From Schleiferiaceae bacterium (GTDB lineage Bacteria; Bacteroidota; Bacteroidia; Flavobacteriales; Schleiferiaceae), in contig JAURMB010000003.1 of the NCBI GenBank assembly GCA_030831045.1, positions 1-7,544 of the forward strand: a stretch of 7,544 nucleotides of DNA, in the 5' to 3' direction. The position numbers and the translations under genes are program-made. The notes beneath the pieces are model-generated. The model did not search any database and was not told the DNA's origin. It saw only the letters and a list, made by a program, of their open reading frames with translations. Each line of letters starts with the position of its first letter. Positions within the stretch are counted from its first letter, which is position 1. This document shows positions 1,136 through 7,544 of the stretch, in pieces.

Positions 1136-2200
1136 ATGCGCGAACGACCTCCTTTAGTCACCGTGGCGGTACCCAACTACCGTCATGCACGCTACCTCAA
1201 GGAGCGCCTCGAAAGCATTGCCCAACAGAGCTTTACCGACGTCGAAGTGCTCCTGCTCGACGACGCCTCGCCCGACCATTCGCTCGAAATTTTGACGGAA
1301 TTCGCCGCCGGACGCCCCGGCTGGTCCGTGCATTCCAACGACCAAAATTCCGGGAGTCCCTTTGCCCAATGGAACAAAGCTGCGGCGATGGCGCGCGGAA
1401 CCTACCTCTGGATTGCCGAAAGCGACGACGTGGCCGACCCCCGATTGCTTGAGACGTTGGTCGGTCTAATGGAGTCTGATTCGGGGCTTGCGATCGCCTA
1501 CGCCCAGTCAATGCTCATCGACGAAGACAGCGCGCCCCTGCACACGTTTGATGTTCACTACCGCTACGTTTTTGGTACCGAAGCGGTGCGCTGGGAGCAC
1601 GGCTACCGCAACGACGGCATCGACGAAATCCGGCGTTTTATGCTCCTGCACAACGTGGTTCCCAACGCCTCGGGGGCGCTGCTGCGGCTGTCCACGTTCC
1701 GCGAAGCCGGCGGAGCGGTCCCCCATTGGAAGCTCAACGGCGACTGGATGACCTACCTAAAAATGCTGGAGCTCGGCGGCATCGCTTTTGCCCCCAACGT
1801 GCTGAACTACTTTCGGGTTCATCCGCACACGGCCCGCCAAAAAGCCAACGAAACCGGCGAGGTGTATCGGGAACTCCTGGCTCTCGTGGACTACATTTCG
1901 GAGCATCACCGACCCGAACCCGTTCGGCGCGCCAGGGCCTACCGCAACGTCGCCGCGTGGTGGACCCACTCGCTCTACCGCCAAGATTGGAGCGCGTCGA
2001 ACCGAGCGACCAACCTTCGCGTCAACGCGGCACTACTTCGGCGGTTTTTAAAGCTCCACCCGCTCGTGCTGCTTCACATACCGTACGAGGGCGCGGTTCG
2101 CCTTGCAGTGCGGACCCTTGAACTCCTGGGACTCAAGGAACCCCTTCGCCGCGCGCTGCACCGGGCCTTCCCCAGCCACTTTATGCCCCGTGCGACATGA
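1136..2200 (+). CDS. Family 2 glycosyltransferase
   Basis: This 354-residue protein has a GT-A fold. The N-terminal nucleotide-binding strand VTVAVPNYRHARYL is at residues 8-21, the LLLDDASPD motif at 39-47, and the DxD-like metal and sugar-nucleotide site ESDD at 95-98. Asp203-Trp204, in a GDWM segment, fits the acceptor/catalytic region, and His229 in the RVHPH segment fits the downstream conserved histidine. No membrane segment is evident, so it is probably a cytoplasmic or peripheral enzyme adding one sugar to a surface glycan. The start at 1136 leaves only seven residues before the first beta strand, which is normal for GT2. It is followed by a second GT2 gene overlapping by ATGA. Donor and acceptor sugars cannot be deduced. 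Confidence 0.9.
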   Translation: MRERPPLVTVAVPNYRHARYLKERLESIAQQSFTDVEVLLLDDASPDHSLEILTEFAAGRPGWSVHSNDQNSGSPFAQWNKAAAMARGTYLWIAESDDVADPRLLETLVGLMESDSGLAIAYAQSMLIDEDSAPLHTFDVHYRYVFGTEAVRWEHGYRNDGIDEIRRFMLLHNVVPNASGALLRLSTFREAGGAVPHWKLNGDWMTYLKMLELGGIAFAPNVLNYFRVHPHTARQKANETGEVYRELLALVDYISEHHRPEPVRRARAYRNVAAWWTHSLYRQDWSASNRATNLRVNAALLRRFLKLHPLVLLHIPYEGAVRLAVRTLELLGLKEPLRRALHRAFPSHFMPRAT

Positions 2201-3042
2201 ACATTAGCGTGATCATTCCATGCTTTGCCTCGGAGTCAACGTTGCGCGAGGCCGTGGTAAGCGCCTCGGCCGCTCACGAAGTGCTGGTAATCGACGATGC
2301 CTCTCCGGGCGGTTGCGCCGAGCTCGTCGCTTCTTGGAACTGGACCAACGTTCGGGTGATCACGCATTCCGAAAACCTGGGACTCGGCGCCGCGCGAAAT
2401 ACCGGAGTGCGCGAAGCAACCGGCGATTGGGTCGCCTTTCTCGATGCCGACGACTGCTTCGAACAGACGTGGCACGAACATCTGCAGGCAGCGCTCGCGG
2501 CGCATGCGGAATCCTCGTGGCTCTACCACCCCGTGCGGGAATGGGACGGAACGCGGCTCGGACGCATTCGACTGGGAGACCATCCTACCCAAATCAGCGA
2601 CTGGGTGCTCAAGCGGCCCGCCGTGGCTCCAAGCGCGTGCACCCTGCGGGTAGACCTGGCGCGCAGCCACCCGTTTGACACCGCCCGTAGCCTTCAGGGC
2701 ACCGAAGACCTCGAACTCTGGGTGCGGCTGTGGGCAGAAGGGCTGCGGCCCGTTCGCTGGACCGACGAAGCCTTCACCCGCTACCGAATCGGTTTTGGCA
2801 TGTCGGCCGAACTGGATTCCCACAGCACCAAGATTCGCTTGCGCTGGGCCCAATTTGTACAGCGCGGATGGCTTCCTGAAGCCGTTCTCCTATCGGCCGA
2901 GCGCGAACTGCAGCGGCAAAAAGCGCGGAGCCTCCACAAAGCTGGGCGGTTTTTTGAAGCACAAAAGGCCTACCGCATGGCAGGCCTTTCGATTCAGAAT
3001 GTGCTGTTGGCCGCGGCAGCCGCCGCGCGAGTCCGCCTCTAG
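2197..3042 (+). CDS. Family 2 glycosyltransferase, translationally coupled
   Basis: The 281-residue product starts directly with the GT-A strand [16 protein letters not shown]. It has VIDDASPGG at residues 31-39, [13 protein letters not shown] at 59-71, the metal-binding LDADD at 82-86, and a GTEDLELW motif at 168-175 whose Glu-Asp matches the catalytic-base region of GT2 enzymes. The last 60 or so residues form a charged helical tail of the type [12 protein letters not shown], perhaps for protein contacts. ATG 2197-2199 overlaps the TGA 2198-2200 of the preceding glycosyltransferase (ATGA), a classic sign of coupled translation, so the two probably work on the same glycan. Its TAG shares the palindrome CTAG with the stop of the convergent icd gene. 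Confidence 0.9.
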
Positions 3043-4265
3043 AGTCGGGCGCGAAGTTCCGCATCCAAGGCATCCAAGAATTCCTCGGTGTAGAGGTAGT
3101 GCGTGCCGTGCTCCACGCGGTTGCCGTGAATGCACACCGCTAAATCCTTAGTCATGCGGCCGCTCTCGACCACATCGATGCACACCTGCTCCAAGGTTTC
3201 GCAGAAGCGAATCAACTCGGCGTTGCCGTCGAGCTTGCCCCGGTGCGCGAGTCCGCGCGTCCAGGCAAAAATGGACGCAATCGGATTCGTGCTGGTCGGT
3301 TTGCCCTGCTGATGCTGGCGGTAGTGGCGCGTTACGGTTCCGTGGGCCGCCTCGGCCTCCATGGTTTGTCCGTCGGGCGTAATCAGCACCGACGTCATCA
3401 AGCCCAGCGATCCAAAGCCCTGAGCGACCGTATCGGACTGAACGTCTCCGTCGTAGTTCTTGCAGGCCCAAACAAAAGAACCTTCCCATTTAAGGGCTGA
3501 TGCCACCATGTCGTCGATCAGTCGGTGCTCGTAGGTAATGCCTGCGGCCTCGTACTTGGCTTTGAATTCAGCCTGGTAGATTTCTTCAAAAACGTCTTTA
3601 AACCGGCCGTCGTACTTCTTCAGAATGGTGTTTTTGGTACTGAGGTACAGCGGCCACTTTTTATCGAGCGCCATGTTGAAGCAGCTCCGTGCAAAGCCCG
3701 CAATTGACTCGTCGGTGTTGTACATGCTCAGCGCCACTCCGTCGCCTTTGAAGTTGTAGACCTCCCAGGTTTGGGGCTCGCTTCCGTCTTCAGGGGTGAA
3801 GGTCATCGTGAGTGTTCCCTTGCCCTTCACCGTGGTGTCGGTGGCGCGGTATTGGTCGCCAAACGCGTGGCGTCCAATGACAATGGGCTTGTTCCAGGTT
3901 GTGACCAGGCGCGGAATATTTGCCATCACAATCGGCTCGCGGAACACCGTTCCGTCTAAGATGTTGCGGATGGTGCCGTTGGGCGACTTCCACATCTGCT
4001 TGAGGTTGAACTCTTTTACGCGCTGTTCGTCGGGCGTAATCGTGGCGCACTTAATGCCCACGTGGTACTTCTTAATCGCCTCGGCCGCATCAACCGTCAC
4101 TTGGTCGTTGGTGGCGTCGCGGTGCTCCATGCCCAAGTCGTAGTACTTGATGTCGAGGTCGACGTACGGAAGAATCAGCTTGTTTTTGATAAACGACCAA
4201 ATGATTCGGGTCATTTCATCGCCGTCCAACTCGACGACGGGGTTCGCAACAGGTATCTTTTGCAT
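3039..4265 (-). CDS. icd: NADP-dependent isocitrate dehydrogenase, eukaryote-like homodimeric type
   Basis: The 408-residue enzyme oxidatively decarboxylates isocitrate to 2-oxoglutarate with reduction of NADP, in the cytoplasmic TCA cycle. It belongs to the subfamily that includes human IDH1/IDH2, not the E. coli Icd type. The isocitrate-binding motif SPNGTIRN is at residues 94-101, with Arg100, Arg109 and Arg132 (in GRHAFGDQY) and Tyr139. The catalytic lysine is Lys211 in the LSTKNT motif. Metal-binding aspartates are Asp251, Asp274 and Asp278, followed by the [10 protein letters not shown] segment and the coenzyme-binding HGTVTRHYR at 308-316. Length is normal for the family and no key residue is missing. 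The ATG at 4265 follows a perfect -7 box. It lies 33 bases downstream of the dnaX stop on the same strand and is convergent with the second glycosyltransferase. Confidence 0.97.
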
Positions 4266-4298: not shown

Positions 4299-6170
4299 TT
4301 ATTCGATATCTAGCTGAAATTCTCTTCGAAATTCGTCTAAATGTGGATTTTTTTCTAACAAAAAGGCGTACCGCTCATCGGGCGTATACACCAAACGGGC
4401 GTTGACGGCTCCCTCCTGAACCTCGGTGCGGATTTTCAGCGAATCGTTGTGCAGCGCTTGCCGCAAAAAAGGCAGGATGCGGTCGCGCACGGAATTCAGG
4501 TATCCTTCTTGAAGTTCGTTTTCTAGGCTCACTCGAACGCCGTTATCCTCCTCGAGGACCGGCTTGACTTGCTGAACAATGGCCTTGATTACCGGAACTT
4601 CATCCAGCGTCGCGGCGGACTCGAGCCACGCCGTCTCGAGCGCCGCCTGCGTAACGGGGCGCAACCGACGCTCCACCAGGGTCGAGACCTCGGCAACCGA
4701 ATCATCCGGTTCTTGGCCCAGCTGCTCCAGGGGTGCTCCCACGGCAATCGGTGCCGGCGACGGAGACTCCAAGTCTTTGAGCGAAAAGGCCGTTCGGCGC
4801 ACCCGGGCCACCGGATTCACGACCGGCACCGTTTCGGGCGACGGAGCCAACGGCACTTCGACCGGCTCGTCGAGGACCCGATCCGGCCCGATGGGCTCAG
4901 ACTCTTGAAGCAGCGACGCTGCGGGCTCCACCGGAGCGAGCTCGATGGGCTCAGACTCTTGAAGCAGCGACGCTGCGGGCTCCACCGGAGCGGCCATCGG
5001 AGCAGGCGCTGGAACGGCTGCTTCCACCGGCGCGGGCGAAGACGGTTGGGGGCGCTTCGCAGGAGCCTCGAGCTCGGCTACGCGTTCGTTAGTGGGATTT
5101 TTTTTTTCGTCGACGGACTCGTCGGAAATCAAGTCAAGCAGCGCCACCTCGACGTGCCATCGGGCATTGCTTGCGGCTCGGTACCCCGCATCGGCGGCCA
5201 CAAGGCGCTTTAAGGCGGTCGCCGCGCGTCCTGCACTCACGCGCGATGCCGAATCGAGGATGCCGCGCTTCACCGAATCGGGAGCGTCTAGCAACGCCAC
5301 GGTGCTGGGATGGTGCGCCAAAAGCAGTTCGCGCACGTACCCGGCAAATCCCATCAGAAAGCGCTGAAGATCAAATCCTTGATCGAGGATGTTGTGCACC
5401 GCCGTGAGCACCGCGGCGCGGTCCCCTGCTTCGATAGACTCCCAAAGCTGAACAAAAAGGGCCCGATCGACCAGCTGAAGGTTTTGGCGAACGAGTTCGT
5501 AGGTCAAGGTTCCGCCTTGGGCAAATGCTGCAATGCGGTCAAAAATGGACAGGGAATCGCGAAGCGAGCCGTCAGCCTTCTCGGCAATCGCATGCAGGGC
5601 CTGAGGGTCCGCTGTGAGCCCTTCTTGCTGGGCTACCCAGGCCAAATGCTCGGCGATGTCGCCGATTCCGATGCGCTTGAAATCAAAAATCTGGCAGCGC
5701 GAAAGAATGGTGGGCAGCACTTTGTGCTTTTCGGTCGTCGCTAAAATGAACACGGCGTGGGCGGGCGGCTCTTCGAGGGTCTTCAAAAAGGCATTGAAGG
5801 CCGCTTGCGAAAGCATGTGCACCTCATCAATGATGTACACTTTGTAGGTGCCCATCTGCGGTGCAAAACGCACTTGGTCAATGAGCTGGCGAATGTCGTC
5901 AACCGTGTTGTTGGAGGCCGCGTCCAGTTCAAAAATGTTGAGGCTGTAGTCAAGGCCTTCACCCGTGTGCACCTCGTTGATGCGCCGGGCCAAAATGCGG
6001 GCACAAGTCGTTTTGCCTACTCCGCGCGGACCAGTGAAGAGCAATGCCTGCGCCAGGCGACCGCTGACGACTTCGTGCTCCAGCGTCTCGGTTACGTGGG
6101 CCTGACCGACCACCGAGGCAAAGGCCGCGGGCCGGTATTTACGGGCTGAAACGAGGTACTGCTGGTCCAT
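4299..6170 (-). CDS. dnaX: DNA polymerase III subunit gamma/tau (clamp loader ATPase)
   Basis: This is the clamp-loader motor that opens and loads the sliding clamp, with tau joining the polymerase to the helicase. It has 623 residues. AAA+ motifs are in order: VSARKYRPAAF at 7-17, Walker A GPRGVGKT at 47-54, Walker B YIIDEVHM at 112-119, sensor 1 around ATTEKHK at 144-150, the SRC arginine-finger motif at 157-159 and sensor 2 GSLRD at 201-205. The collar domain ends near residue 350, then a Pro/Ala/Glu-rich linker runs to about 490, then a C-terminal tau domain. The four zinc-binding cysteines usual after Walker A are absent. ATG 6170 is preferred: the in-frame TTG at 6185 lies inside the gene's own -7 box. 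A run of ten A residues at the collar/linker boundary could yield a short gamma form. Confidence 0.96.
   Translation of the reverse strand: MDQQYLVSARKYRPAAFASVVGQAHVTETLEHEVVSGRLAQALLFTGPRGVGKTTCARILARRINEVHTGEGLDYSLNIFELDAASNNTVDDIRQLIDQVRFAPQMGTYKVYIIDEVHMLSQAAFNAFLKTLEEPPAHAVFILATTEKHKVLPTILSRCQIFDFKRIGIGDIAEHLAWVAQQEGLTADPQALHAIAEKADGSLRDSLSIFDRIAAFAQGGTLTYELVRQNLQLVDRALFVQLWESIEAGDRAAVLTAVHNILDQGFDLQRFLMGFAGYVRELLLAHHPSTVALLDAPDSVKRGILDSASRVSAGRAATALKRLVAADAGYRAASNARWHVEVALLDLISDESVDEKKNPTNERVAELEAPAKRPQPSSPAPVEAAVPAPAPMAAPVEPAASLLQESEPIELAPVEPAASLLQESEPIGPDRVLDEPVEVPLAPSPETVPVVNPVARVRRTAFSLKDLESPSPAPIAVGAPLEQLGQEPDDSVAEVSTLVERRLRPVTQAALETAWLESAATLDEVPVIKAIVQQVKPVLEEDNGVRVSLENELQEGYLNSVRDRILPFLRQALHNDSLKIRTEVQEGAVNARLVYTPDERYAFLLEKNPHLDEFRREFQLDIE
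4889..4996 (-). repeat. In-frame tandem duplication (54-base period) in the dnaX linker
   Basis: Bases 4889-4938 and 4943-4992 are identical over 50 bases and are offset by 54 bases, so they form two units of 18 codons. They encode VEPAASLLQESEPI twice, at about residues 393-410 and 411-428 of DnaX, in the Pro/Ala/Glu-rich linker. Because synonymous sites also match exactly, the duplication looks recent or kept uniform by recombination. It preserves the reading frame and only lengthens a presumably disordered region. Confidence 0.95.
5078..5108 (-). promoter_or_regulatory. Candidate slippage/frameshift site in dnaX for gamma production (A10 run with stops in both alternative frames)
   Basis: The coding strand has ten consecutive A residues (5107 down to 5098) spanning Glu355-Lys-Lys-Asn358, right after the collar domain and before the tau linker. 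If one A is added, or the ribosome shifts -1, the frame reads Lys-Ser-His and stops at TAA (5089-5091), giving 360 residues. If one A is lost, it reads Ile-Pro-Leu-Thr-Asn-Ala and stops at TAG (5078-5080), giving 363 residues. Both products would keep the AAA+ and collar domains, the definition of gamma. Thermus thermophilus dnaX makes gamma by transcriptional slippage on an A run; E. coli uses a -1 ribosomal shift on A AAA AAG. Only a weak 4-base stem is visible downstream, which favours polymerase slippage. Function is inferred. Confidence 0.55.
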
Positions 6171-6194: not shown

Positions 6195-6821
6195 TTAGTT
6201 GCCGATTGGCCACAGCCACGAAAGGGCAAAAAAACAGGCTTGCGCGAGGAGCACCGGCCGAGCGAGGGGGTTGCGAAGCGGAGCCGTTCCGAGCAACCAC
6301 TGCGCGGCAAAGGCAACCACGGCCCACGACGCGTAGTTCTGCCAGGGCGCGACTCCGCCGACAAAGAGCCACAGCCGGTGTGCGTGGGCGACCGGCTCCA
6401 TTAGCACGTCGAGGGCCAGCATCAGGCCGCTAGCTAAAAGGGCGCGCTGCAGTCGCGTTCCGTCGACCAAAAACTGAGAGGCAAACGATCCGGTCGCCAA
6501 GCTCAGTAAGGCCCAATTCAGGCCGATGAGCCACGGGGTTTCCATGACCTTGGGACCGAGGCCTTCAAGGTAAACGTAGGCCCCAAATGGAAGGCCCGTG
6601 TTGACCCCAAGGATTTCCACAGCGAGTCCCAAGGCAAAAATGGCGAGGAGCGAGGCTTTAAGCCGCTCCGAGCGGTCCGAGTAGAAAAACAGCAGGCCGA
6701 AGGTGAGCAGTAGGTGGACCGGGGTGAGCAAGATCATCCAGTCAGCCCAAGGGCTACGTAGCCCAATGGCGCCTACCAAATGGGTGACCACGACAACGAG
6801 GAGTGCAGTGCGGTGCGGCAT
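6195..6821 (-). CDS. cruF: Carotenoid biosynthesis membrane protein, CruF-like 1',2'-hydratase
   Basis: This 208-residue, strongly hydrophobic protein has about six or seven membrane segments. It shows the signature of the CruF/DUF422 carotenoid family: EILGVNTGLPFGAYVY at residues 69-84, ETPWLIGLNWALL at 94-106, DVLMEPVA at 138-145 and PWQNYASW at 159-166. Known relatives hydrate the psi end of acyclic or monocyclic carotenoids (gamma-carotene 1',2'-hydratase, bisanhydrobacterioruberin hydratase), a step toward hydroxylated carotenoids such as myxol- or saproxanthin-type pigments. The start at 6821 is chosen because MPHRTALL leads directly into the first helix and a perfect -7 box lies just upstream. 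The longer reading to 6917 would run across the divergent promoter into the neighbouring gene. No other carotenoid gene is in the window, so the exact substrate is open. Confidence 0.82.
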   Translation of the reverse strand: MPHRTALLVVVVTHLVGAIGLRSPWADWMILLTPVHLLLTFGLLFFYSDRSERLKASLLAIFALGLAVEILGVNTGLPFGAYVYLEGLGPKVMETPWLIGLNWALLSLATGSFASQFLVDGTRLQRALLASGLMLALDVLMEPVAHAHRLWLFVGGVAPWQNYASWAVVAFAAQWLLGTAPLRNPLARPVLLAQACFFALSWLWPIGN

Positions 6822-6825
6822 GCTC

Positions 6826-6833
6826 CAAAGGTA
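6826..6833 (-). promoter_or_regulatory. Bacteroidota -7 promoter box (TACCTTTG) of the cruF-like gene
   Basis: The minus strand reads TACCTTTG, a perfect TAnnTTTG match, with only four bases before ATG 6821. The expected transcription start, about 5 bases after the last G, coincides with the A of the ATG, which predicts a leaderless mRNA. The box shares its TA with the candidate box of the divergent gene. Confidence 0.6.
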
Positions 6834-6839
6834 GGATTG
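6832..6839 (+). promoter_or_regulatory. Candidate -7 box (TAGGATTG) of the divergent unknown gene
   Basis: TAGGATTG matches TAnnTTTG with one mismatch and would give a leader of about 27 bases before ATG 6871. It overlaps the cruF-like -7 box on the other strand by the two bases TA at 6832-6833. No clear ribosome binding site follows. Moderate to low confidence. Confidence 0.35.
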
Positions 6840-6870
6840 AACCCTGCACCGGAATCCGCGTTGACGTAGT

Positions 6871-7344
6871 ATGTGGACCGAACGCCGAATGCTTGCCGTG
6901 GTGGCCGCCCTTTGCACGGCCGTCGTGGGTCTCGCTGTAGCTAACTACGAGGCGCCTCCCGTTGACCTCGGCTACCGCAACAACCTGCAAGAGAACCGCT
7001 TGCTGTACTTTACCAACATTCGGAGCATTCACTACACCCTCGCGGAATACGGACACGGTGTGGGCCGATTTACCCCTGAGGACCTCGATTCTGAGCAGGG
7101 CGGCTTTGTGATCCGAATAAACCGCCACAGCGCCGAGGCGAACATTGTTTGGCAGCGCGGAACGGCCGCCGAACGCCTCGTCGAGCGCCCCGACTCGCTC
7201 GGCCTATGGGATCCCGATACGGCCCAGCTACCTACGCATTGGAACATGGCCCTGCGGCAACTTCGGCGGCAGCGGCGGCCCGACCGGGTACTGTCTGATT
7301 ATTTTGAGCTTATTGGCATCTTCCCCGAACACTTAAAGAACTGA
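6871..7344 (+). CDS. Unrecognised probable exported or membrane-anchored protein
   Basis: The product has 157 residues and I do not recognise its family. The N-terminus has the form of a signal peptide or anchor: MWTERR, then a hydrophobic stretch at residues 7-24 ending in GLAVA, a plausible signal peptidase I site before Asn25. The lone Cys15 sits mid-helix after Leu, so it is not a good lipobox. The mature part is polar and rich in Arg, Asp and Glu. It has an aromatic, charged segment ENRLLYFTNIRSIHYTLAEY around 41-60, a beta-like stretch GGFVIRINRHSAEANIVW around 77-94, and a basic RQLRRQRRP near 128-136. Codon and base use match its neighbours, which supports a real gene. It is divergent from the cruF-like gene and ends 39 bases before rpsF. 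No function is assigned. Confidence 0.75.
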   Translation: MWTERRMLAVVAALCTAVVGLAVANYEAPPVDLGYRNNLQENRLLYFTNIRSIHYTLAEYGHGVGRFTPEDLDSEQGGFVIRINRHSAEANIVWQRGTAAERLVERPDSLGLWDPDTAQLPTHWNMALRQLRRQRRPDRVLSDYFELIGIFPEHLKN

Positions 7345-7352
7345 TTTTTTTG

Positions 7353-7360
7353 TATCTTTG
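7353..7360 (+). promoter_or_regulatory. Bacteroidota -7 promoter box (TATCTTTG) of rpsF
   Basis: TATCTTTG followed by C is a perfect match to TAnnTTTG(C), preceded by seven T residues (7345-7351). The expected start near 7365 gives a leader of about 19 bases. It begins 9 bases after the stop of the upstream gene, so the ribosomal protein operon has its own promoter. No convincing -33 TTG is found at the usual spacing. Confidence 0.7.
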
Positions 7361-7370
7361 CGCCCCTTAA

Positions 7371-7375
7371 AAGGA
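7371..7375 (+). promoter_or_regulatory. Shine-Dalgarno-like site of rpsF (AAGGA)
   Basis: AAGGA lies 8 bases before ATG 7384, a usable spacing. It is the only clear Shine-Dalgarno-like sequence before a start in this window; the other promoters sit too close to their ATG for one. Many Bacteroidota genes do not rely on this pairing, so its importance is uncertain. Confidence 0.4.
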
Positions 7376-7383
7376 AATTTCTA

Positions 7384-7544
7384 ATGAAACAATACGAAAC
7401 CGTTTTCATCCTAAATCCCGTCTTATCTGATGATCAGATAAGGGAAACGGTGGATAAATACACCAGCAGCATTAAAGCCGCCGGTGGTTCCATCATCAAC
7501 GTAGAGCGTTGGGGCCTGCGCAAGCTTGCGTACCCCATCGACAA
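7384..7544 (+). CDS. rpsF: Ribosomal protein bS6, N-terminal part (runs off the window)
   Basis: The 53 complete codons read [18 protein letters not shown], then a helix, then [16 protein letters not shown]. This is the unmistakable N-terminal half of small-subunit protein bS6, including the first beta strand with YETVFIL and the conserved WG..KLAYPI segment. bS6 binds 16S rRNA together with bS18 in the platform of the 30S subunit. In Bacteroidota it usually starts an rpsF-rpsR-rplI operon, which would continue beyond the window. A strong -7 box and a Shine-Dalgarno-like site precede it. The C-terminal half is missing only because the window ends. Confidence 0.98.

What the first reader, a model, noticed from the sequence alone, without database searches (positions are those of the whole stretch)
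5078..5108. A10 run at the collar/linker boundary of dnaX with closely spaced stops in both shifted frames: probable gamma/tau switch by slippage
Seen: in a GC-rich gene, the longest homopolymer of the window (ten A on the coding strand) lies at codons 355-358, just after the clamp-loader collar domain. Adding one A leads to TAA after Lys-Ser-His; losing one A leads to TAG after six codons. Either way the product is about 360 residues with all ATPase and collar parts. Known: Thermus thermophilus makes gamma by transcriptional slippage on an A run, and E. coli by a -1 frameshift. Inferred: this lineage uses the same trick, with a design that tolerates slippage in either direction. I am not aware of it being described for this group.
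Basis: partly seen in the sequence, partly recalled or inferred. Interest (0 to 1): 0.72.

Follow-up and report, generated by a model that had tools for sequence, protein, structure and literature searches.

The report
Slippery A-run making two clamp-loader proteins
A run of ten A's inside a bacterial DNA-replication gene very probably lets the cell make a short and a long version of one protein because the copying enzyme slips there; many relatives keep the same trick, and one related group seems to have replaced it with a deliberately leaky stop codon.

Summary
The window's dnaX (623 codons, minus strand) has A10 at codons 355-358, right after collar domain III. One A more gives TAA and 360 residues; one A fewer gives TAG and 363.

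Relatives support a programmed gamma/tau switch. An A9-A13 run lies just after the collar in 250 of 286 Bacteroidota dnaX loci; in 244 of the 250 one frame continues as tau and the other two stop within 20 codons. Both near stops exceed synonymous shuffles (27 of 31 thinned loci; shuffle mean 10.5, maximum 17). The tau frame drifts: 182 in-frame, 63 need +1 A, 4 need -1 A, even between sister loci. That, with little downstream RNA structure, favours RNA-polymerase slippage (Thermus-type) over -1 ribosomal frameshifting. No transcript or protein was seen, and the principle is published.

Unexpected: some loci without the run use other devices. Three have A_AAA_AAG, an immediate stop and a hairpin. 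In a Bacteroidales family, 52 of 78 inspected loci (20 of the 78 chosen for short first frames) have an in-frame TAG inside a conserved RNA element, tau continuing in the same frame: candidate programmed readthrough, which my paper searches did not show described.

The parts
4299..6170 (-). dnaX, DNA polymerase III gamma/tau, 623 codons, ATG at 6170
   Evidence: TIGR02397 dnaX_nterm 359.9 bits over cut-off 250; PF13177, PF22608, PF12169 over cut-off
5112..5501 (-). collar domain III (residues 224-353), last part shared by gamma and tau
   Evidence: PF12169 match 224-353
5098..5107 (-). A10 slippage run (T10 on the + strand), codons 355-358
   Evidence: run of 9 or more at this place in 250 of 286 loci
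5089..5091 (-). TAA met when the message has one A more (gamma of 360 aa)
   Evidence: TAA/TAG/TGA at the corresponding place in the 18 nearest relatives listed
5078..5080 (-). TAG met when the message has one A fewer (gamma of 363 aa)
   Evidence: a -1A stop within 12 codons of the run-start codon in 17 of the 18 nearest relatives listed, 39 codons in L084
4299..5097 (-). tau-only part: fast-evolving linker and C-terminal tau region
   Evidence: NF011531 profile aligns 3-622 of the protein though below its cut-off (560.9 of 685 bits)

Best explanation
The A10 run is a programmed slippage site that splits dnaX expression into tau (623 aa) and gamma (about 360 aa: ATPase and collar without the tau-only tail). 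RNA polymerase slips on the run, so the messages carry 9, 10, 11 or more A. Messages with 10 (or 10+3n) A give tau; the others meet a stop within a few codons and give gamma. Shown: the anatomy, its conservation, selection for stops in both shifted frames, drift of the tau frame among relatives. Inferred: that slippage occurs, that it is mainly transcriptional, and that both proteins exist in the cell.
For: Run of 9-13 A at the same place in 250 of 286 loci, one locus with 8 and 35 with 7 or less, never 9 or more in an equal upstream stretch. In 244 of 250, one long frame and two frames closed within 20 codons. Both stops within 10 codons in 165 of 181 single-ORF loci (shuffle maximum 67) and 62 of 63 loci of the +1 class; thinned to under 65% identity 27 of 31 (shuffle mean 10.5, maximum 17). 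The -1A frame, which a -1 ribosomal shift does not need, is closed within 6 codons in 86% (expected 37%). Tau frame 0, +1 or -1 in 182, 63 and 4 loci; 24 parsimony changes single/split; sister loci differing by one genomic A with opposite layouts (L259/L262, L173/L208, L217/L220). The run persists in 17 of 26 loci above 55% GC.
Against: No RNA-seq or protein data. 36 of 286 loci lack the run, Bacteroides L046 among them, so gamma is dispensable or made otherwise there. Locus by locus the stops are not extreme: the mean rank of the observed distances among shuffles was 0.42-0.46 per frame in the two large classes and 0.27-0.29 for the larger of the two distances, where chance gives about 0.61. 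Loci are related, so pooled counts overstate independence. Ribosomal slipping on the same run would look similar in most loci.
Confidence: 0.75

Rival explanations
1. Ribosomal -1 frameshifting on A_AAA_AAA (E. coli-like) makes gamma while RNA polymerase is faithful.
For: The run holds tandem AAA codons, and adding one A is equivalent to a -1 ribosomal shift, so it explains the single-ORF and the +1 classes. Three run-less loci (L203, L204, L206) do carry the E. coli heptamer with a hairpin.
Against: The -1A frame is closed as well, beyond expectation; four loci have tau in the -1A class; mean z of downstream folding is -0.33 against -0.18 in control stretches (140 loci; 9% against 4% below -2) and SD-like sequence is not enriched (8% against 15%, 248 loci). 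The window's own downstream stretch has z -0.56.
Confidence: 0.15
2. No recoding: a Lys-rich hinge that happens to be written in AAA; only tau is made.
For: The linker is charged and variable; 36 of 286 loci live without the run; no protein evidence exists here.
Against: 63 plus 4 loci need a shift to make tau at all; the run is kept in 17 of 26 GC-rich loci; stops in both frames exceed shuffles; 119 of 120 nearest proteins keep EKK in a fast-changing linker.
Confidence: 0.07
3. Sequencing or assembly error, or a hypermutable on/off (phase-variable) run.
For: Homopolymers are error-prone; many loci are MAGs; genomic run length differs between sister loci.
Against: The run recurs in separate assemblies and in named isolates such as Pedobacter puniceum L007, Aquimarina mytili L014 and Hymenobacter polaris L069, and at nearly every length one tau frame and two early stops remain. 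Switching a replication gene off has no evident use.
Confidence: 0.03

Closest known systems
Thermus thermophilus dnaX, gamma by transcriptional slippage on nine A (Larsen et al. 2000, not held; seen through PMC1088944 passages and PMC5009743 section 21)
   Same: Sense-strand A run, tau in one ORF, near stops in both non-zero frames, a shorter product expected from slipped messages.
   Different: Ten A instead of nine; here the run sits directly after the collar (codon 355 of 623), there seven-eighths along the gene; slippage not demonstrated here.
Two-ORF dnaX genes with 7-10 A found by GeneTack (PMC3711429, passages)
   Same: Same run length, predicted transcriptional realignment; 67 of the 250 run-bearing loci here have tau in another frame.
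   Different: The window has tau in frame. The species with 10 A are in a supplement I could not see.
Escherichia coli dnaX -1 ribosomal frameshift (PMC3711429 and PMC5009743, passages)
   Same: Same end: gamma and tau from one gene.
   Different: Window: no A_AAA_AAG, no SD-like enrichment, no marked downstream structure. L203, L204 and L206 resemble it with roles reversed.
Viral programmed stop-codon readthrough with a downstream RNA structure, such as murine leukaemia virus gag-pol (recalled, no call)
   Same: Only for the Bacteroidales relatives: in-frame UAG, short fixed spacer, downstream stem, longer product in the same frame.
   Different: A bacterial replication gene; near-invariant bases between stop and stem; readthrough not demonstrated. 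Not a feature of the window.

Membership tests
Thermus-type dnaX transcriptional slippage | Run of at least nine A on the coding strand after the clamp-loader core | tested here: met
   A10 at codons 355-358, domain III ends at 353
Thermus-type dnaX transcriptional slippage | Tau encoded in one ORF with near stops in both other frames | tested here: met
   Stops after 360 and 363 residues
Thermus-type dnaX transcriptional slippage | Transcripts with mixed A counts; gamma and tau both present | not testable with these tools
   No RNA or protein data
E. coli-type dnaX -1 ribosomal frameshift | A_AAA_AAG heptamer | tested here: not met
   Window reads GAA AAA AAA AAT
E. coli-type dnaX -1 ribosomal frameshift | Stem-loop just downstream | tested here: not met
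   Window 65 nt downstream z -0.56; relatives mean -0.33 against -0.18 control
E. coli-type dnaX -1 ribosomal frameshift | Upstream Shine-Dalgarno-like stimulator | tested here: inconclusive
   No enrichment over 248 loci; the window was not scored on its own
Two-ORF dnaX (GeneTack 2013) | Tau in another frame than gamma in the DNA | tested here: not met
   Window tau is in frame; 67 relatives meet it
Programmed stop-codon readthrough (Bacteroidales relatives only) | Conserved in-frame stop with conserved coding sequence after it | tested here: met
   TAG in 52 of 78 inspected loci, tau 182-257 codons after it in frame; third-position excess among eight
Programmed stop-codon readthrough (Bacteroidales relatives only) | Readthrough product made | not testable with these tools
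   No proteomics; reinitiation at the ATT/ATA after the stop not excluded

The most novel reading that the evidence does not exclude
Bacteroidota keep the gamma/tau split of dnaX with interchangeable decoding devices at one boundary: an A-run slippage site as in the window, whose tau frame is free to drift; an A_AAA_AAG plus hairpin ribosomal frameshift in one small lineage; and, in a Bacteroidales family, programmed UAG readthrough driven by a conserved element (UAG-AUW-GCA-AGR, then a GC stem 9-10 nt downstream), with a possible +1 frameshift variant (AGG-CYU-AGC-UAG). The UAG device would be programmed stop-codon readthrough in a bacterial chromosomal replication gene: an RNA model of it has one strong hit (E 1e-4 or better) in each of 105 of 189 genomes.
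Probability: 0.6. Interest if true: 0.85.

Novelty: new member of a known kind. Interest (0 to 1): 0.6.

Why it matters
One review states that most bacteria lack frameshift signatures in dnaX and may not make gamma (PMC3290774, passages); another that gamma by frameshifting seems limited to enterobacteria (PMC4456610, passages). A slippage site kept in 250 of 286 loci of one phylum says that a short clamp-loader subunit matters more widely, and the drifting tau frame gives natural experiments. Split dnaX genes in this phylum can also be misread as gamma-only or broken genes. If the TAG element is real readthrough, it adds another way of making gamma and tau.

Tried and rejected
Own genome of the window: none held; G055 (DnaX 98% identical) stood in. 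Stimulators for A-run loci: no SD-like enrichment and only a slight excess of folding. AAA codon choice inside the run is no independent evidence, because loci were picked for having the run; I give instead how many GC-rich loci keep it (17 of 26). Rfam on four TAG loci: matches all below the gathering scores and none credible. Covariation of the TAG stem on one fixed register is weak (covariation score reached in 477 of 500 shuffles, 79.6% of cells paired), since the stem slides by a base among loci; the support is codon choice and stem score against synonymous shuffles (on average 16% of a locus's own shuffles still reach its score). The A_AAA_AAG hairpin rests on three sequences (two pairs changed on both sides, 57 of 500 shuffles as high). 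A reassigned TAG was considered: of 44 ORFs of 200 or more codons (stop to stop, not proven genes) on eight TAG loci 18 end in TAG, but 8 of those are dnaX itself, so this is only modest evidence against it. Suppressor tRNA: no CTA anticodon among 30 anticodons recovered from one genome, but only 30 of its 42 tRNA matches were given as loci. More members of the A_AAA_AAG lineage: the genus search held one genome; among the relatives of G065 I did not inspect the new loci. A structure prediction was not run.

Full report
Observation. The window's dnaX runs on the minus strand from ATG 6170 to the stop at 4299 (623 codons). The coding strand carries A10 at 5107-5098, codons 355-358, directly after collar domain III, which ends at residue 353. 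One extra A leads to TAA after 360 residues, one fewer to TAG after 363, two more or fewer to 364 and 359. It is the longest homopolymer of a 60% GC window. In G055, whose DnaX is 98% identical, four A/T runs of 10 or more exist in 1.6 Mb; I read the other three as lying outside genes.

Sample. The phylum list is cut at the weaker end, so distant members are under-represented. Four loci with short alignments were dropped (L211, L323, L333, L337), leaving 286.

Conservation. 250 of 286 have an A run of 9-13 near the collar end: A9 50, A10 177, A11 19, A12 3, A13 1. One further locus has 8 as longest run there and 35 have 7 or less; an equal stretch upstream in the same genes never reaches 9. 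Of the 36 without a run, L099 (masked), L209 and L319 (contig ends) say little. In 119 of the 120 listed nearest proteins Glu-Lys-Lys stands at this place in a fast-changing linker. Of 26 loci above 55% GC, 17 keep the run.

One frame lives, two end. In 244 of the 250 loci exactly one of the three frames after the run is long and the other two end within 20 codons; the exceptions are L040, L084, L094 (short contig), L216, L269 and L338. The long frame is the DNA frame in 182, needs one more A in 63, one fewer in 4. Against shuffles that keep the tau protein, both stops lie within 10 codons in 165 of 181 single-ORF loci (expected 28%, maximum 67 of 181 in 400 shuffles, linker positions 17%), in 62 of 63 of the +1 class (expected 24%, linker 24%) and in 4 of 4 of the -1 class (expected 22%). 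Locus by locus this is milder: the mean rank of the observed distance per frame was 0.42-0.46 in the two large classes. Keeping one locus per 65% identity group leaves 31 usable: 27 have both stops within 10 codons, shuffles give 10.5 on average and 17 at most; the mean rank of the larger distance is 0.29 where chance gives 0.61. For the window alone 4.6% of shuffles do as well. The -1A frame, which a -1 ribosomal shift does not need to close, is closed within 6 codons in 86% of single-ORF loci (expected 37%, linker 18%).

Drift of the tau frame. On a FastTree tree of 283 collars, whose weak forks and long branches the tool points out, single-ORF and split layouts change 24 times; shuffled labels give 60 on average and 53 at least. 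Sister loci show how: L259 has A10 with tau in frame and L262 A9 with tau one A away; L173/L208 (A11/A10) and L217/L220 (A11/A10) differ likewise; Aquimarina L014 and L067 both have A10 with tau in different frames. Around Aquimarina mytili, 50 of 52 genomes of the genus matched: 32 with a long open frame (586-629 aa) and 18 with 365-402 (table only). If RNA polymerase mixes the frames anyway, such changes cost little.

Mechanism. A floor of 9 A agrees with the length at which selection against slippage becomes evident in many genomes (PMC1088944, passages). Downstream folding is barely different from control (140 loci; mean z -0.33 against -0.18) and SD-like sequence is not enriched (248 loci). 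Four loci (L021, L063, L108, L220) have tau in the -1A class, which -1 ribosomal shifting cannot serve. I therefore favour transcriptional slippage at about 0.75. That slippage occurs, its extent and the presence of both proteins remain inferred.

Where the run is missing. Three run-less loci (L203, L204, L206) have A_AAA_AAG followed at once by a zero-frame stop, tau in the -1 frame, and a stem six bases downstream (11 pairs in the common structure, 97% of cells paired, two pairs changed on both sides). The folding z-scores are -1.50, -0.46 and -3.54, so the structure is clear in one and supported by shared position in the others. This is the E. coli device with roles reversed, a layout that the 2016 review mentions. 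Other run-less loci, Bacteroides L046 among them, show no signal I can name.

A leaky stop. L076, a Bacteroidales MAG, has an in-frame TAG at the boundary with tau continuing in the same frame. In its family 59 of 61 and, in a fuller search, 158 of 190 genomes matched. I inspected 78 loci: L076's own, 29 and 28 that the searches gave as best matches, and 20 that I chose for a short first open frame and lower identity. 52 have the in-frame TAG with 182-257 codons of tau after it, 19 are single ORFs, 6 are split otherwise, one is cut. Without the 20 chosen, it is 36 of 58. The stop is TAG in 52 of 52. The bases that follow are nearly fixed: Arg is AGR in 52 of 52 (24% in tau overall), the second codon GCA in 48 of 52 (24%), Ile never ATC (40%), and the base before TAG is A or T in 50 of 52 (30% at third positions upstream). 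A stem starts 9-10 bases after TAG in 50 of 52; its mean score is 11.6 against 5.1 in synonymous shuffles and 4.0 in control windows. Eight tau extensions are down to 23% identical to each other, with third positions changed most. An RNA model of the element matches 118 of 189 genomes at E 0.01; 105 hits at E 1e-4 or better lie in 105 genomes, and the 30 best loci are all this place in dnaX. The 120 nearest proteins listed are 348-426 aa, so the early stop recurs in many assemblies. Four of the six other split loci (L465, L469, L470, L478) have AGG-C[T/C]T-AGC-TAG with tau in the +1 frame. Programmed UAG readthrough is my best reading (0.6); reinitiation at ATT/ATA after the stop, a special tRNA or a changed code are not excluded.

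Prior work. Thermus slippage and two-ORF dnaX with 10 A are published. Paper searches on dnaX with slippage, frameshifting or readthrough and Bacteroidetes, Bacteroidales or Flavobacterium (listings seen, long lists cut) showed nothing on the TAG element; the library lacks most subscription journals.

Verdict. The window's feature is real, very probably functional and a new member of a known kind. Its phylum-wide setting and the readthrough-like replacement in a Bacteroidales family are what would surprise a specialist.

Noticed in passing
L371 (=L076), L375, L376, L380, L381, L383, L386, L390, L434-L461, 16 of L462-L481: dnaX with an in-frame TAG at the gamma/tau boundary inside a conserved element (TAG-ATW-GCA-AGR and a GC stem), tau continuing in the same frame: candidate programmed stop-codon readthrough.
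   Followed up: partly
L465, L469, L470, L478: Same family: AGG-CTT-AGC-TAG (CCT in L469) with tau in the +1 frame, possibly a +1 ribosomal frameshift.
   Followed up: no
L203, L204, L206: dnaX with A_AAA_AAG, an immediate zero-frame stop, tau in the -1 frame and a downstream hairpin.
   Followed up: partly
G062 (L101, L210): Two different dnaX matches in one assembly, perhaps a mixed bin.
   Followed up: no
window 4876-4983: Tandem duplication of 54 nt in the tau linker, second copy 91% identical.
   Followed up: no
window 1136-2200, 2197-3042, 3039-4265, 6195-6917: Neighbours: two family-2 glycosyltransferases, an isocitrate/isopropylmalate-type dehydrogenase, a carotenoid biosynthesis protein; the ORFs at 183-1106 and 6871-7344 have no Pfam match.
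   Followed up: no
window 7345-7544: TATCTTTG upstream of an ORF that starts at 7384 and looks like ribosomal protein S6; the box resembles the TAnnTTTG promoter element of Bacteroidota (motif and name recalled, no call).
   Followed up: no
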